Source: Caldicellulosiruptor saccharolyticus DSM 8903
Lineage (GTDB): Bacteria > Bacillota > Thermoanaerobacteria > Caldicellulosiruptorales > Caldicellulosiruptoraceae
NCBI RefSeq assembly: GCF_000016545.1
Contig: NC_009437.1
Location: forward strand, 723,501-787,500
Direction: 5' to 3'
Length of the DNA: 64,000 nucleotides
In this document: piece after piece, positions 27,774 to 63,509 of the stretch
How positions within the stretch are numbered: the first letter of the stretch is position 1
Layout: each line of letters starts with the position of its first letter
Made by a program: the position numbers and the translations under genes
Notes under the pieces: model-generated
What the model saw: only the letters and a program-made list of their open reading frames with translations
What the model was told of the DNA's origin: nothing
Database searches by the model: none

Positions 27774-27779
27774 ACTGCT

Positions 27780-27881
27780 GCAACGGCGAGGGAGTCCGCC
27801 GAACAAATGCCAATGATGGCTGATGACTCCTACAAATATTGCGTCTTTGTAAAAAGGCGTAATATTTGTAGGAGTTTTTTG
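27780..27881 (+). promoter_or_regulatory. Fluoride riboswitch (crcB motif) with transcription terminator
   Basis: The aptamer core matches the crcB motif: GGCGAGGGAGTCCGCC near the 5' end (27785-27800), a small GCC/GGC stem, and the conserved GCTGATGACTCCTAC (27819-27833). ACTCCTACAAATATT at the 3' edge is complementary to AATATTTGTAGGAGT (27860-27874), which is followed by TTTTTTG. Fluoride binding should hold the aptamer and prevent this terminator, turning on the two crcB genes. Confidence 0.93.
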
Positions 27882-27948: not shown

Positions 27949-28350
27949 ATGAAAAACATAGCTGCAATCTCAGTAGGTGCATTTTTTGGTGCGATCAGCA
28001 GGTACTTAATTTCGCAGTTGTATGTAGCCGATTTTCCAATAGCCACACTTTTTATAAATGTGCTTGGCAGCTTTATTTTGTGCTTTGTTGCGCAGATTAC
28101 TATTGATCATATAAAAATAAAACCGGCTATCCGTCACATGATTACAACTGGGTTTATAAGCAGTTTTACAACCTTTTCAACATTTATAATTGAGATAATA
28201 AAGCTTATCTCAAAAGGCGAGGCGGCAAAGGCTTTTGTGTATCCTGTACTTTCAATTTTGCTTGGGCTTTTTGCAGCGCTGCTGGGCTATGAAGCAGCAG
28301 AGTTTGTTGCAACAAGAAGGCAAAAAGAAGAGGTGGCTCAGGAGGTATGA
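27949..28350 (+). CDS. crcB: Fluoride channel CrcB/Fluc, first subunit
   Basis: A 133-residue membrane protein with four hydrophobic helices, the size of a single Fluc subunit. It keeps the GAISRYL stretch near the N-terminus (about residue 14), LFINVLGSF (about 35-43, conserved Asn) and TTGFISSFTTFSTF (about 64-77), the family's pore-lining, sodium-binding region. Fluc proteins are dual-topology dimers that export fluoride. The start ATG 27949 follows AAGGAGAG. It lies 70 bp behind the fluoride riboswitch terminator and overlaps the second subunit gene by 4 bp (ATGA), as expected for a heterodimeric channel. Confidence 0.95.
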   Translation: MKNIAAISVGAFFGAISRYLISQLYVADFPIATLFINVLGSFILCFVAQITIDHIKIKPAIRHMITTGFISSFTTFSTFIIEIIKLISKGEAAKAFVYPVLSILLGLFAALLGYEAAEFVATRRQKEEVAQEV

Positions 28351-28703
28351 AACTTTTGGTTGTTGGACTTGGCGGGGTTGTAGGTGCAGTTTTGAGGTAT
28401 ATAATTTCTAAGATTTTCAAAGAAGTTATGGAAAGAGAACACCCAATTTCAACCTTGTTTATAAATGTAGCTGGGTGTTTTTTCATAGGTTTTTTGTCAT
28501 CAAAGCATTTACCACAAGGATACAAACTATTTTTGACAACAGGTCTTCTGGGTGGGTTTACTACATACTCTACCTTTATGCTTGAGACATCAATGTATGT
28601 AAAAAAATCAAAGCATAAAAAGGCTTTTGTGTATGTTTTCCTCTCTATTGTGTTTGGCATAATGGCAGCAGGTGCTGGGATTTGGTTGGCGAATGCCAAT
28701 TAG
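28347..28703 (+). CDS. crcB: Fluoride channel CrcB/Fluc, second subunit
   Basis: A 118-residue CrcB homologue with four helices. Motifs are GGVVGAVLRYI (about residues 8-18), TLFINVAGCFFIGF (about 36-49) and TTGLLGGFTTYSTFMLE (about 64-80), parallel to those of the first subunit. Its start overlaps the end of the preceding gene, so translation is coupled. Having two unequal subunits with probably opposite membrane orientation matches the paired Fluc genes known from other Gram-positives. A short terminator overlaps its last codons. Confidence 0.95.
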   Translation: MKLLVVGLGGVVGAVLRYIISKIFKEVMEREHPISTLFINVAGCFFIGFLSSKHLPQGYKLFLTTGLLGGFTTYSTFMLETSMYVKKSKHKKAFVYVFLSIVFGIMAAGAGIWLANAN

Positions 28704-28776: not shown

Positions 28777-29001
28777 ATATTATTAGATACAACAAAACCA
28801 ACAAGGTGTAAAGTAACAATAATTATAGGGCAGTATGAAAATGATTATCCTAATCCGAGTTGTTTACTCTCTTGGGTACCCAAAAATGGTTTACCACTTC
28901 ATGCAGTCTGTGCAGTTGGATATGGTTTTTTGTGGCTTATAACTGCATATTTTCCTTCTGAGGACGAATGGATGATTGATTTTAAAACGAGGAGGAAATA
29001 A
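28777..29001 (+). pseudogene. DUF4258-type toxin remnant, N-terminus lost
   Basis: An open frame of 74 codons encodes a DUF4258 core: GQYENDYPNPSCLLSWVP, then LPLHAVCAVG, LWLITAYFPSEDEWM and the terminal DFKTRRK. Those segments match the order in DUF4258 proteins, which act as RelE-like toxins next to YgiT-type antitoxins. No ATG, GTG or TTG lies at the head of the frame, and an upstream ATG (28773) is in another frame and soon meets a stop. The usual N-terminal 25-30 residues with the histidine are missing. It directly precedes the antitoxin gene, as expected for such a module, but should be inactive. Confidence 0.75.
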
Positions 29002-29003
29002 AA

Positions 29004-29227
29004 ATGCATTGTGTAGGACAGAAATGAAAGAAGGAAAGATTAAACATATTGTTGATGTTGGTAACCAAACTGTGATTATAAAAAACGTTCCAGCACTTGT
29101 ATGTGGACAATGTGGAGAAGCTTATCTTGATGATGAAACAGCACTTAAGCTTGAAAAGATAATGGATGAACTTCTTAAAACTAAAACAGAGATAATTATA
29201 GCAAACTATTCAGATATTGCAGCATAG
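29004..29227 (+). pseudogene. YgiT-type zinc-finger antitoxin, frameshifted at its start
   Basis: The ATG at 29004 has a good GGAGGAAA ribosome site but its frame reads MHCVGQK and stops. The body of the protein, from EMKEGKIKHIVDVGN onward, is in another frame and is otherwise intact, with ALVCGQCGEAYLDDETA (second zinc-binding CxxC) and a C-terminal helix. YgiT-type proteins need two CxxC pairs; the first has collapsed to a single Cys by a small deletion at the frame change. An internal ATG (29021-29023 region) could give a shortened product. It follows the DUF4258 remnant by 2 bp, so this is a decayed toxin-antitoxin pair. Confidence 0.7.
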
Positions 29228-59016: not shown

Positions 59017-59045
59017 TTGACTAAAATTTCAAAACTTCATATAAT
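59017..59045 (+). promoter_or_regulatory. Promoter of the second fluoride riboswitch transcript
   Basis: TTGACT (59017-59022), 17 bp, TATAAT (59040-59045); the start is expected near 59052. Confidence 0.8.
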
Positions 59046-59069
59046 AAAGATTAAGAAAAAAAGTGAATA

Positions 59070-59166
59070 TAGAGGCGATGGAGTTCGCCTTAAATTGCCA
59101 CAAGAATGAAAAATACCTTGTGGCTGATAACTCCTGTCCGTATAAAGGTGCGGGCAGGAGTTTTTT
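59070..59166 (+). promoter_or_regulatory. Second fluoride riboswitch with terminator
   Basis: The crcB-motif core is clear: GGCGATGGAGTTCGCC (59073-59088), a GCCACAAG/CTTGTGGC stem, and GCTGATAACTCCTG (59123-59136). ACTCCTGTCCG (59130-59140) pairs with CGGGCAGGAGT (59151-59161), followed by TTTTTTG: a terminator that competes with the aptamer 3' strand. Fluoride should switch the downstream gene on. The downstream gene is not crcB. Confidence 0.9.
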
Positions 59167-59209
59167 GTTTTATATGCTCTTATTTTTGAGTATTTTGGGG
59201 GGATGGACT

Positions 59210-59842
59210 TTGGATATTGTGTATTTTGAAATGATAGAAAACTTCAAAGAAGATAAGTGTATAATTTGCTATTTAAAAAACAAGGCAATGGATAAATTCT
59301 TTGACGATTTTCTGTACGAATCGGTAAATGATTATAGTCTGCGTGACAAAATCAGAAAAGGAGGAATATGTCCGGCGCATGCAAGAAAGTTAGAGTCGTT
59401 TGGAGATGTGCTTGCCCATGCCATTATATATTCAGACTTGCTAAGTAATTTTAAAAACAACCACCATATTGAGATATTGCCTCGAAAAAAGAAAGCTAAA
59501 GAACAAAATATGTGTGTCTTTTGTGAAAAGGAAAATGGCTTTGAAGATACCTACACAAGAGCGTTTTCCTCCTTTTTTGCTACCCAGTCTCAATTTAAGT
59601 CTGCATTTGCTGAAAGAGGGTTTATATGTCAAAGGCACTTAAATCAAGTTTTGGAGAAGACAGCTTCTGTATCTGTGCAAAAGGAGCTTTTGTCAGTTAT
59701 GGGGGCTAAGATAGACAGAATCTTGAATCATCTTGAGAGAATAAAAGAAAAAAATGACTATCGGAACATTCACATCAATTACACACCTGATGAAATCAGG
59801 GCATGGCACATGGCTATTGAGTTTGTGGCAGGTGCGCAGTAA
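59210..59842 (+). CDS. Cysteine/histidine-rich protein (DUF6062-like) under fluoride riboswitch control
   Basis: A 210-residue soluble protein. It has two parallel metal-site-like units: CIIC (about residue 17) with CPAH (about 57), and CVFC (about 102) with CQRH (about 141), each a CxxC plus CxxH set spaced about 40 residues apart. The arrangement suggests duplicated treble-clef or zinc sites. The rest is helical and charged. It resembles the DUF6062 type, assigned from memory of the pattern. The start chosen is TTG 59210 with GGGGGG 7 bp upstream. The frame is open back to 59063, but that stretch is the riboswitch, so an upstream start would be an artefact. Control by a fluoride riboswitch implies a role in fluoride stress, for example protecting a metal-dependent process; this is inference. 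Confidence 0.8.
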   Translation: MDIVYFEMIENFKEDKCIICYLKNKAMDKFFDDFLYESVNDYSLRDKIRKGGICPAHARKLESFGDVLAHAIIYSDLLSNFKNNHHIEILPRKKKAKEQNMCVFCEKENGFEDTYTRAFSSFFATQSQFKSAFAERGFICQRHLNQVLEKTASVSVQKELLSVMGAKIDRILNHLERIKEKNDYRNIHINYTPDEIRAWHMAIEFVAGAQ

Positions 59843-60165
59843 GTTCATTGTCAGGCAGGCAAATGCTTTGTGATGACGTTGTAATGAGGTAAAAAGATAG
59901 GGCATAGCCAAAATGTGTTAATAAAAGTTGTAAAGTTGAAAAGTAAACTTTCTAAAATTATTTTTGAATTAAAATAAGAGGATACCAGTTTAAAACTTTA
60001 TTAATACCCTTTTTCATATGAGTTTACTTGATAGCCCCAGCACATAACATTTTTGATTTTATGTACGTTTAAATTGACAAAAAGGCAAAATTTGATACAA
60101 TATATGAAGTAGTAATTTTTGAAAGGGCTTTAAAAATAAACCTGTGTGAAAGGAGATTTAAACAG
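59843..60165. other. Intergenic region with promoter for the ABC-2 operon
   Basis: TTGACA (60074-60079), 16 bp, TACAAT (60096-60101) forms a plausible promoter with start near 60108. The rest is AT-rich with no gene seen and no clear terminator for the preceding gene. Confidence 0.6.
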
Positions 60166-62574
60166 ATGAGAAAAAGGCTGGTTGTTGTCTTATTTATTTC
60201 TTTGTTTTTACTGATAGGAAAGAGTATTACATATGCTAATAATAGTATAGAAATTACCAATATTGAGTATGGAATTGACAACAAAGTAAATTTATACAAT
60301 TTAATTGAGCTTAAGATAACCCTGCAAAACAGAAGTCAAGACTACTTCAAGGGCAAAATTTCTGTTGAATGGTGGGAGCCTAAAAATGCTGCATTTGCTA
60401 CTTCCTTAGCTTCAAGACCAAAGGAAAAGAAGTTTAGTTTTTCAAAGGAATTTGAGCTTGCAGCAAGTTCAAAAAGGTCTATTATTCTTCCCATGTGTTT
60501 TGGTGACATGATATATTCTGCAACATATGTTAAAATTTATAATTCAAAAGGAGATGTGATTTTAAGCAAGCAGATAGCCCCACCTAAGAAAGTATATAAT
60601 TTAAGCATTGGTCTTCTTTCAGACCAAAAGGATATAGTAAAATATCTGATAAAGCCATCTCAACAAGCAACAAGAAGTGTCACTGTGGTTCTATTGGATA
60701 GTTCAAATTTTCCTATAACCTCATCGTTATTAGAGAGATTTGATACCATAATAATTCACAATTATAAAACTTCAAATCTTTCTGCTGATCAATACAGAGC
60801 GTTGAAAAATTATATTATTAGAGGTGGCAAGTTAATTATATTCTTGGGCGAAAATTATCAAAAGAATTTGTCAATTTTTAAAGATAACTTTTTAGAAGGT
60901 AAAATTATGGGTATTAAAAAGGGAGATATCAGTCTTAATATAGATGAACAAAAGCTCAATTATACCTCAGTGGAGGCGAATGAAGAAAATTCAGAAGATA
61001 TTGTCTTGAATAATGCAAGATTTGTGGATTTTATTTTAAAAGATGGAGAAAAGATAAATCAGTTACATATTCAGCGAAAGATAATTGGCAATGGTGTTGT
61101 GCTTATAACCTCATTTGACCCATTTGAATTGGACATACCTCAAGAAAAGAGAGATAAATTATTAGGGTTTCTACTCCAAAGTTGTTATTCTGAATATTCA
61201 AGGCTTTTTCAAGGGATTACTACAAATTCCACCTCTTACTCCTGGGGTGTGCCTAACTCAATTTACAATTTAGCAGTAAATGTAAAATGGCCTCAGAATG
61301 GTTTGATAATTATTTTGATAGTTATATACATTTTTTTAATTAGCTTTGGGAACTATTTGATACTAAAAAAGTTTAATAGACGTCACCTTACATGGCAATT
61401 TATATTGTTTGGAAGTATAGTTTGGACAGGAGTTATATTTGGTGTTGCTAATGTGTATAAAATAAAACAGCCAAGTATTACAGAAACAAACTTTATTGTT
61501 TACAACACCGACAGGAAAGGATATATAGTGAACAAGTATTACCAGATTTTTACTCCACTTAAGAGTAGCTTAGAAGTTGAAGCTACTGACAGTCAAAAGA
61601 TAGAGCCATTGGTCAAATCTTTCAAAGCATTTGTTGTGAACTTGGATTATGCAGATGATTTTGAGTATTATCCATGGGAAAAGATTATCTTTAAAAATGT
61701 TCCGGCATTTTCTGTAAAGTTTGTAAGGAACTTGGAAACTTATGAACTTCCCAGTCCTTTAGTTGAGATGAAATTAAATTTAAAGGATATTTTAAAACCA
61801 TCTGTAGAGATAGAAAATAAATCAAACTATGAAATTAACCATTTGTTTGTATTTTTGTCTAACAACATGGCTTATGTAGAGAATCTAAAACCCAATGCTA
61901 AGGTTGTAAGGTCCTTTTCAAATATAGGCGCTGATATTGCAAGTGGTATTAGAAACCAGCTTTACAATTTTAGCAAGAACAGACAATTAAACTATATGTA
62001 CATTAATAGGTTAGTAGACCTTTGTATAACATCAATACCAGAAAATAATTATTCAACTTTTTATGCAATAGGTTATATCAAAAATTTCAATGATTCGCAG
62101 TTAAAAGTAAATTCTAAATTGGTGAAGACCAGAGGTGAAGCAATTTTCAGAGTTGACATAAAACCAACGTGGCTTGTTGATGGAAAAATGGTTATTCCTT
62201 ATGGCATTATAGTTCCGGTAATTATTAAAAATACATTCCAAAATTCAACTTCCTACGGAACAGGTGTTCAAGTATCTTATTATGGAAAAGGAGAGATAGA
62301 GATAGAATACAACATTGCAAGTGTTTTAGAAGATATTAAAAAGGTCTCGGTTAGAAATGATTCATTGTATGGGAGAAGTAATGTAAATGAATTTATTTAC
62401 AACTTCAAAAGCAAGAAATGGGATAGAGTTGATTTGAGCAAGGCCATCTTAATTTCAGAAAGTGATTTTGGCAAATATCTTTATAGAGGAAAATTGCGCA
62501 TTAAGGTAGTTGGATTTGATAATTCTTCAGTTGCTAGCATTCCTCTTATTTCAGTAGAAGGTGGTGGAAATTAA
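60166..62574 (+). CDS. Exported/membrane protein, GldG-like partner of an ABC-2 transporter
   Basis: An 802-residue protein of unknown family. The signal sequence covers about residues 1-25. An outside part of about 350 residues follows, containing a GATase-like alpha/beta region with VVLLDSSNFPITSSLLERFD and YIIRGGKLIIFLGENY. Two membrane helices are at about 380-403 and 412-435. A second outside domain of about 330 residues follows, predominantly beta. The arrangement of a GATase-like domain with membrane helices recalls GldG-type partners of ABC-2 transporters, but identity is not shown. It is followed immediately by an ATPase (2 bp) and a permease, so the three form one complex. Start ATG 60166 follows AAAGGAGA. 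Confidence 0.7.
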   Translation: MRKRLVVVLFISLFLLIGKSITYANNSIEITNIEYGIDNKVNLYNLIELKITLQNRSQDYFKGKISVEWWEPKNAAFATSLASRPKEKKFSFSKEFELAASSKRSIILPMCFGDMIYSATYVKIYNSKGDVILSKQIAPPKKVYNLSIGLLSDQKDIVKYLIKPSQQATRSVTVVLLDSSNFPITSSLLERFDTIIIHNYKTSNLSADQYRALKNYIIRGGKLIIFLGENYQKNLSIFKDNFLEGKIMGIKKGDISLNIDEQKLNYTSVEANEENSEDIVLNNARFVDFILKDGEKINQLHIQRKIIGNGVVLITSFDPFELDIPQEKRDKLLGFLLQSCYSEYSRLFQGITTNSTSYSWGVPNSIYNLAVNVKWPQNGLIIILIVIYIFLISFGNYLILKKFNRRHLTWQFILFGSIVWTGVIFGVANVYKIKQPSITETNFIVYNTDRKGYIVNKYYQIFTPLKSSLEVEATDSQKIEPLVKSFKAFVVNLDYADDFEYYPWEKIIFKNVPAFSVKFVRNLETYELPSPLVEMKLNLKDILKPSVEIENKSNYEINHLFVFLSNNMAYVENLKPNAKVVRSFSNIGADIASGIRNQLYNFSKNRQLNYMYINRLVDLCITSIPENNYSTFYAIGYIKNFNDSQLKVNSKLVKTRGEAIFRVDIKPTWLVDGKMVIPYGIIVPVIIKNTFQNSTSYGTGVQVSYYGKGEIEIEYNIASVLEDIKKVSVRNDSLYGRSNVNEFIYNFKSKKWDRVDLSKAILISESDFGKYLYRGKLRIKVVGFDNSSVASIPLISVEGGGN

Positions 62575-62576
62575 AA

Positions 62577-63509
62577 ATGCCGCTTTTGGAGATAGAGGGT
62601 TTGACAAAGTTTTATGGGAAGAAAAAGGCTGTTGACAATCTTTCGTTTTCGGTTGAAGAAGGTCAAATATTTGGATTTGTTGGTCCAAATGGTGCTGGAA
62701 AAACAACAACAATGAAAATTATGTGCGGGCTATTAAGAGCAGACGGTGGATGTGTTAAAATTAATGGTATGGACATCTCCAAAAACTTAAGCAAAATAAA
62801 GGCGCTGGTTGGTTATATGCCTGACTTTTTTGGTGTATATGATAATCTTAAAGTGAATGAATATTTAGAATTTTTTGCCCACGCATACCGAATAAAAGGT
62901 ACAAAAGCTCAAAAGATGATAGATGACCTTCTTGAACTTGTCCGCTTGACAGATAAAAAATATGACTTTGTTGACTCCCTTTCGCGTGGTATGAAACAGA
63001 GACTGTGTTTAGCACGATGTCTTATTCACAATCCTTTGCTTCTTGTGCTTGATGAACCGGCTTCTGGAATGGACCCGCAGTCAAGAATTGAGATGAAAGA
63101 GATATTAAAAAACCTAAAAGATATGGGAAAGACCATTATAATAAGTTCACATATATTACCAGAGCTTTCTGAACTTTGTACGCATGTGGGGATAATAAAT
63201 CAAGGCAGAATGGTTGCTCAGGGGGATATTGCACAAATTACAATGTTAGCTCATGGTACAAAGAGGATAAAGGTAAGGTTTGCAGAGGATTTTGAAGAAG
63301 CACTTACAGTATTTAAGGAATTTCCTGCTGTATCGAATGTTCAGGTAATAGAAAATGGGTACATTTTGAGCTTTGATGGCAATGACAATGATATTTTCTT
63401 GCTTATAAAAGGCTTGATTGACAGAGGAGCAAGGGTGTGTGAAGTAGGACTTGTTGAAGGCAGTTTGGAAGAGGCGTTTATGAAAGCAATTCAAGCAGTT
63501 GAAAACTGA
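62577..63509 (+). CDS. ABC-2 type transporter ATPase
   Basis: A 310-residue ATPase. Walker A GPNGAGKTTT (about residue 38), signature LSRGMKQRLCLARCL (about 134-148), Walker B LLLVLDEPASGMDP (about 155-168) and an H-loop in IISSHILPEL. The C-terminal 85 residues form the regulatory tail common in ABC-2/NatA-type ATPases. Start ATG 62577 lies 2 bp after the upstream gene. It energises the permease that follows. Confidence 0.94.
   Translation: MPLLEIEGLTKFYGKKKAVDNLSFSVEEGQIFGFVGPNGAGKTTTMKIMCGLLRADGGCVKINGMDISKNLSKIKALVGYMPDFFGVYDNLKVNEYLEFFAHAYRIKGTKAQKMIDDLLELVRLTDKKYDFVDSLSRGMKQRLCLARCLIHNPLLLVLDEPASGMDPQSRIEMKEILKNLKDMGKTIIISSHILPELSELCTHVGIINQGRMVAQGDIAQITMLAHGTKRIKVRFAEDFEEALTVFKEFPAVSNVQVIENGYILSFDGNDNDIFLLIKGLIDRGARVCEVGLVEGSLEEAFMKAIQAVEN

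What the first reader, a model, noticed from the sequence alone, without database searches (positions are those of the whole stretch)
59070..59842. Fluoride riboswitch controlling a CxxC/CxxH protein instead of a known fluoride exporter
A complete fluoride aptamer plus terminator lies before a 210-residue protein with two CxxC/CxxH units. Known riboswitch partners are mostly crcB, eriC-F and a few enzymes; I do not recall this type as an established partner. A metal-binding protein induced by fluoride would be a new arm of the fluoride response.
Basis: partly seen in the sequence, partly recalled or inferred. Interest (0 to 1): 0.85.

Follow-up and report, generated by a model that had tools for sequence, protein, structure and literature searches.

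The report
Fluoride-switched two-site cysteine/histidine protein
A fluoride-sensing RNA switch sits in front of a gene for an uncharacterised, probably metal-binding protein (DUF6062), and relatives in at least three bacterial phyla are wired to the same switch inside fluoride-defence gene clusters, so the protein is very likely an overlooked part of how bacteria survive fluoride.

Summary
Confirmed and extended. Window 59065-59143 is a full fluoride riboswitch (RF01734, 46.3 bits) with its own promoter-like site and a terminator that competes with the aptamer pseudoknot. The next gene, 59210-59842 (TTG start, 210 aa), belongs to Pfam PF19538/DUF6062, function unknown. All six cysteines lie in two CxxC...CxxH units whose eight putative ligands are invariant in 33 homologues; the halves are an ancient duplication, and AlphaFold gives a confident all-helical model with no clear PDB match. 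The pairing is not a one-off. All 13 genomes of the window's family keep the switch before this gene or its remnant; only switches facing deletion remnants have broken pseudoknots. Directly switched DUF6062 genes occur in 11 of 24 Bacillota families, 5 more have them inside fluoride clusters, and Omnitrophota and Planctomycetota have linked copies too. Neighbours are fluoride genes (Na+/H+ antiporter, Usp, MutS-like, enolase, crcB) and further uncharacterised proteins. But DUF6062 is mixed: 39 of 88 tree rows, including a paralogue in the same genome, have no switch. The genome also has a riboswitch-controlled crcB pair. Induction, metal binding and biochemical role are untested. I found no paper naming DUF6062. 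The switch is classical; the partner is new.

The parts
59017..59045 (+). promoter-like site TTGACT-17 nt-TATAAT
   Evidence: consensus scan, 11 of 12 matches; the number of such sites in the region is not above shuffles
59065..59143 (+). fluoride riboswitch aptamer (RF01734, crcB motif)
   Evidence: cmscan 46.3 bits, gathering 34; P1 and pseudoknot pairs form in 100% of cells over 36 aptamers, with compensatory changes at 6 of 9 pairs
59129..59162 (+). intrinsic terminator; its 5' arm contains the aptamer's pseudoknot strand AACTCC, so pseudoknot and terminator are mutually exclusive
   Evidence: terminator scan, fold, pairing check in 14 homologous leaders
59210..59842 (+). 210-aa DUF6062 (PF19538) protein, TTG start, two CxxC/CxxH units
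   Evidence: Pfam E 5.6e-18, 65.7 bits against cut-off 27; dN/dS median 0.11 among orthologues
59258..59380 (+). unit 1: C17xxC20 ... C54xxH57
   Evidence: ligand positions invariant in 33 homologues
59513..59638 (+). unit 2: C102xxC105 ... C140xxH143
   Evidence: ligand positions invariant; profile-profile match of unit 1 to unit 2, probability 97.2%, E 3.4e-11
27776..27839 (+). second fluoride riboswitch of the window, before tandem crcB
   Evidence: cmscan 47.7 bits
27949..28703 (+). two overlapping crcB (Fluc) genes, 27949-28350 and 28347-28703
   Evidence: ORFs; named by recognition of the family, not by an HMM search of these two ORFs

Best explanation
The element is a transcription-attenuating ON switch dedicated to a DUF6062 gene. 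Without fluoride the terminator forms. With fluoride the aptamer's pseudoknot captures the AACTCC strand, the terminator fails and DUF6062 is transcribed. The product is a soluble, all-helical cytosolic protein built from two duplicated CxxC...CxxH modules, each most likely holding a structural metal ion (Zn2+, possibly Fe), with a separate conserved polar signature (E37 and K181-x-D183-Y184-R185). It acts inside the cell as an accessory fluoride-tolerance factor alongside the export arm (crcB). In relatives it is a movable member of a fluoride module: DUF6062, Na+/H+ antiporter, Usp, dynamin-like GTPase, zinc-ribbon/HEAT protein, MFS, and enolase or phosphoglycerate mutase. In the window genome DUF6062 is the only part of that operon still attached to the switch. 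Shown here: switch anatomy, family identity, invariant ligands, conserved linkage, purifying selection. Inferred: fluoride induction and metal binding. The biochemical step is a guess: a zinc-stabilised binding protein or enzyme whose E37/KxDYR site acts on a fluoride-damaged Mg2+- or phosphate-dependent process (about 0.25).
For: RF01734 match and terminator. 13 of 13 family genomes carry the switch, 12 before a recognisable DUF6062 and G007 before a deletion remnant, about 90 nt apart. Only the two switches before remnants (G007, G002 extra copy) have lost pseudoknot pairs. Chance of a switch lying within 300 nt of a gene is about 1e-4 to 3e-4 per gene. Direct linkage in 11 of 24 Bacillota families and cluster linkage in 5 more. 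Omnitrophota: five directly linked genomes (L188, L192, L199, L202, L218) and one in the operon RS-PGM-DUF6062-MFS-enolase-zinc/HEAT (L189). A planctomycete has RS-phosphoesterase-ORF-DUF6062. Fluoride-module genes lie near 41 linked copies and near 0 of 25 unlinked ones (GTPase 19 of 41, p 1.5e-5). Eight ligands invariant. Median dN/dS 0.11. Model pLDDT 91.8, pTM 0.86.
Against: No expression or metal data. 39 of 88 tree rows have no switch, including gut Clostridia that are among the closest named homologues and the second DUF6062 copy in the same genome. Some genomes have lost or broken the gene (G007, G008, G018, G020), so it is dispensable there. The GTPase module also exists without DUF6062 (G034), so no fixed partner is shown. 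CxxC/CxxH could hold iron-sulfur or be redox thiols.
Confidence: 0.78

Rival explanations
1. The switch mainly serves a gene further downstream (802-aa protein and ABC transporter at 60166-63509) by read-through, and DUF6062 is a passenger.
For: Those genes lie downstream on the same strand.
Against: There is a 324-nt gap with its own TTGACA-16-TACAAT promoter-like site at 60074-60101. Downstream genes differ between relatives (gltX, GTPase, antiporter, this operon) while DUF6062 is constant. Switches decay when DUF6062 is deleted.
Confidence: 0.04
2. DUF6062 is an obligate adaptor or regulator of the dynamin-like GTPase of the operon, and together they protect the membrane against HF entry or repair it.
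For: The GTPase lies near 19 of 41 linked copies and 0 of 25 unlinked ones, often as the very next gene (G139, G068, G001, G003).
Against: The GTPase occurs without DUF6062 in G034, and DUF6062 occurs without a linked GTPase in the window genome, in Thermoanaerobacter-like genomes and in Omnitrophota. An unlinked GTPase elsewhere in those genomes was not sought.
Confidence: 0.15
3. DUF6062 is a nucleic-acid- or protein-binding regulator with zinc modules that tunes a wider stress response, with fluoride as one input.
For: Switchless paralogues exist in the same and other genomes; two zinc-finger-like units.
Against: No DNA-binding fold was recognised among PDB matches (inconclusive). The K-x-D-Y-R signature is not a known DNA-binding motif (my knowledge).
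Confidence: 0.12
4. The CxxC/CxxH units hold an iron-sulfur cluster or act as redox thiols, so the protein is an electron-transfer or redox-repair factor.
For: Three Cys plus one His per unit suits either metal; most hosts appear to be anaerobes (from record titles and general knowledge).
Against: CxxC and CxxH sit at helix starts in a compact all-helical model, which fits a structural site (one search gives secondary structure only; site geometry was not measured).
Confidence: 0.15

Closest known systems
Fluoride riboswitch / crcB motif (RF01734)
   Same: Aptamer sequence, pseudoknot and overlapping terminator are standard
   Different: Controls a gene of unknown function rather than crcB or eriC-F; the genome's crcB pair has a separate copy of the switch
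Pfam PF19538 (DUF6062)
   Same: Near full-length match at 65.7 bits, cut-off 27; all eight Cys/His ligands present
   Different: A divergent branch; the canonical copy in the same genome scores 220.7 bits and has no switch. The family has no assigned function and no paper naming it was found
Known accessory members of fluoride operons (Na+/H+ antiporter, enolase, pyrophosphatase, formate hydrogenlyase; reviewed in PMC11139923)
   Same: Same type of regulation, and shared operons in G005, G010, G011, G301, G281 and L189
   Different: Those have a stated rationale (pH, inhibited enzymes); DUF6062 has none. The passages of the review that I read do not mention it

Membership tests
Fluoride riboswitch (RF01734) | Covariance-model score above the curated cut-off | tested here: met
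   46.3 against 34 bits
Fluoride riboswitch (RF01734) | P1 hairpin loop to 3' strand pseudoknot | tested here: met
   All pairs form in the window; compensatory changes at 4 of 5 pseudoknot pairs across 36 aptamers
Fluoride riboswitch (RF01734) | Expression platform exclusive with the aptamer | tested here: met
   The terminator's 5' arm contains the pseudoknot strand
Fluoride riboswitch (RF01734) | Fluoride binding and fluoride-dependent read-through | not testable with these tools
   Needs in-line probing or transcription assays
DUF6062 (PF19538) | HMM score above the gathering cut-off | tested here: met
   65.7 against 27 bits, profile 10-218 of 243
DUF6062 (PF19538) | Two CxxC...CxxH units | tested here: met
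   Eight ligands invariant in 33 rows including the window
Fluoride regulon (functional group) | Conserved riboswitch control across independent lineages | tested here: met
   11 Bacillota families and Omnitrophota directly linked; a planctomycete in an operon
Fluoride regulon (functional group) | Contribution to fluoride tolerance | not testable with these tools
   Needs knock-out and growth assays
Zinc-binding protein | Bound Zn2+ in purified protein | not testable with these tools
   Only invariant 3Cys+1His sets were shown
Known PDB fold | Confident structural match to a solved protein | tested here: inconclusive
   Best Foldseek E 1.4; best Z 5.0 against helical repeats, within background for helical models

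The most novel reading that the evidence does not exclude
DUF6062 is a founding example of an intracellular, metal-dependent fluoride-defence protein, an enzyme or a fluoride/Mg-fluoride buffer distinct from export and from over-expressed targets, conserved across at least three phyla together with other uncharacterised partners (dynamin-like GTPase, zinc-ribbon/HEAT protein, c7).
Probability: 0.3. Interest if true: 0.85.

Novelty: new variant of a known kind. Interest (0 to 1): 0.62.

Why it matters
Most known fluoride responses are exporters, pH control or extra copies of inhibited enzymes. A switch-controlled protein family with two metal-type sites and no known function points to a further line of defence inside the cell. 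It gives a directly testable function for an orphan family and a defined set of uncharacterised co-operon genes, with possible use in fluoride-tolerant strains for defluorination chemistry.

Tried and rejected
Read-through to the downstream ABC operon: rejected on promoter, gap and changing neighbours. Chance adjacency: rejected. Exporter disguised as a hypothetical: no membrane span (best 19-residue Kyte-Doolittle mean 0.89) and an all-helical soluble-type model. Solved-structure homologue by sequence: none below E 0.24. Fold match: none convincing. NCBIfam: nothing for the window protein; one of 33 relatives hits TIGR04129 CxxH/CxxC at E 0.0028. A broad alignment was too diverse for the contig scan, so a narrower one was used. 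A custom RNA model was not built: P3 arms misaligned in MAFFT, and Rfam searches were enough. Baker et al. 2012, the primary gene table for this riboswitch, is not held, so a prior unnamed listing there cannot be excluded.

Full report
What is there. The window holds two fluoride riboswitches above Rfam's cut-off: 27776-27839 (47.7 bits) and 59065-59143 (46.3 bits). The first precedes two overlapping crcB genes. A promoter-like TTGACT-17-TATAAT lies at 59017-59045 and a strong terminator at 59129-59162. The leader folds at -48 kcal/mol, z -6.8. The terminator's 5' arm contains AACTCC, the strand that the aptamer pseudoknot must capture, so the two structures exclude each other. This is the standard ON-switch layout. 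Across 36 aptamers from related loci, P1 and pseudoknot form in 100% of cells, with changes on both sides at 6 of 9 pairs.

The protein. It matches PF19538/DUF6062 at 65.7 bits, cut-off 27. Its only six cysteines form C17xxC20/C54xxH57 and C102xxC105/C140xxH143. All eight ligand positions are invariant in 33 homologues. In a more diverse set of 26 mostly fluoride-linked rows, C140, H143 and Y184 are invariant and the other ligands plus E37, K181, D183, R185 and G208 are at 90% or more. Unit 1 and unit 2 are homologous (hhalign 97.2%, E 3.4e-11). AlphaFold from 33 sequences gives pLDDT 91.8, pTM 0.86, all helices. No solved structure matches by sequence, and no fold match rises above background, which leaves the fold question open. 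Median dN/dS among orthologues is 0.11, so the protein is under purifying selection.

Linkage in the window's family. In all 13 genomes there are riboswitches, and a divergent DUF6062 copy lies about 90 nt downstream of one in 12 of them. In G007 the switch faces an internally deleted remnant, and G002 has, besides an intact pair, an extra switch facing a similar remnant. In G008 the gene is broken by stops. The two switches facing remnants are the only ones of 14 with broken pseudoknot pairs and have the lowest scores of the set (38.8 and 40.7 bits). That is what one expects if the switch is kept for the sake of this gene, although it rests on two possibly related events. A second, canonical DUF6062 copy in each genome has no switch nearby.

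Linkage beyond. In the class, Thermoanaerobacter-like genus g5 has the switch directly before DUF6062 in 9 of 10 genomes; in the tenth, G016, about 650 nt of inserted DNA lies between them. G013 has two DUF6062 copies, both switched. In an even draw of 398 genomes of the phylum, 54 have DUF6062 hits, three of them below the family cut-off. By family, 11 of 24 have a directly switched copy and 5 more have one inside a fluoride cluster. In Omnitrophota, L188, L192, L199, L202 and L218 are directly switched and L189/L214 lies in an operon RS-phosphoglycerate mutase-DUF6062-MFS-enolase-zinc/HEAT; two further genomes have none. In a planctomycete, L212, it is the third ORF behind a switch, near switched PFK-enolase and formate-hydrogenlyase-like genes. 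The product names in L189 and L212 rest on sequence recognition, not on HMM searches. Chance placement would be about 1e-4 to 3e-4 per gene. On the tree the switch label needs at least 9 changes, so linkage was gained or lost many times.

Neighbourhood. Complete modules read RS-DUF6062-Na+/H+ exchanger-Usp-dynamin-like GTPase-c7-zinc ribbon/HEAT in G005, with close variants in G010, G011, G321, G281 and G301 (Pfam). Near 41 fluoride-linked copies: GTPase 19, MFS 14, zinc/HEAT 13, antiporter 11, Usp 8. Near 25 unlinked copies: none of these. Two linked rows (G185, G096) were labelled partly by neighbours; leaving them out, the GTPase association stays at p 2.6e-5. Antiporters, enolase and formate hydrogenlyase are established fluoride-switch partners (PMC11139923). 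In the window genome only RS-DUF6062 remains; the genes after it are unrelated.

Mechanism. Shown: switch anatomy, gene partnership, conservation, selection. Inferred: induction by fluoride and metal binding. Most likely the protein is a cytosolic accessory defence factor stabilised by two metal sites, with a conserved polar site (E37, KxDYR) doing the work. What that work is remains a guess. An obligate partnership with the GTPase is weakened because each occurs without the other in these loci.

Novelty. No paper in the held open library mentions DUF6062, and none combines the fluoride riboswitch, zinc and a domain of unknown function. The primary gene table (Baker et al. 2012) could not be read, so an earlier anonymous listing is possible. 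The riboswitch is ordinary; the partner family, its breadth and its metal-type sites are what is new. The name Caldicellulosiruptor for the window organism is my inference from gene content; no tool named it.

Noticed in passing
L137:9461-9871 +, L189:9149-9427 +: A small zinc-ribbon plus HEAT protein recurs in fluoride operons of Bacillota and Omnitrophota; another apparently unstudied fluoride partner.
   Followed up: partly
L137:9123-9464 +: A 113-aa protein (cluster c7) with no Pfam family lies beside DUF6062 or behind its own riboswitch (G034).
   Followed up: no
L137:7333-9111 +: A dynamin-like GTPase of about 590 aa is a frequent member of fluoride operons.
   Followed up: partly
L172:8024-11100 + and L173:3094-6122 +: Tandem pairs of MutS domain V proteins of about 500 aa lie in riboswitch-rich fluoride clusters.
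   Followed up: no
window 28976-29227 +: A CxxC antitoxin-like ORF (YgiT/MqsA type by eye) with an apparently truncated toxin partner lies just after crcB; a similar pair lies just upstream of the DUF6062 riboswitch in G005, and antitoxin-like ORFs also in G001.
   Followed up: no
L143:14480-15160: In G016 about 650 nt of extra DNA lies between the riboswitch and DUF6062, absent in G017.
   Followed up: partly
L145, L147 and L140 (G018, G020, G008): DUF6062 is broken by stops in these genomes while the riboswitch scores above cut-off.
   Followed up: partly
L136:4522-5280 +: Second, canonical DUF6062 paralogue of the window genome, without riboswitch and without fluoride neighbours.
   Followed up: partly
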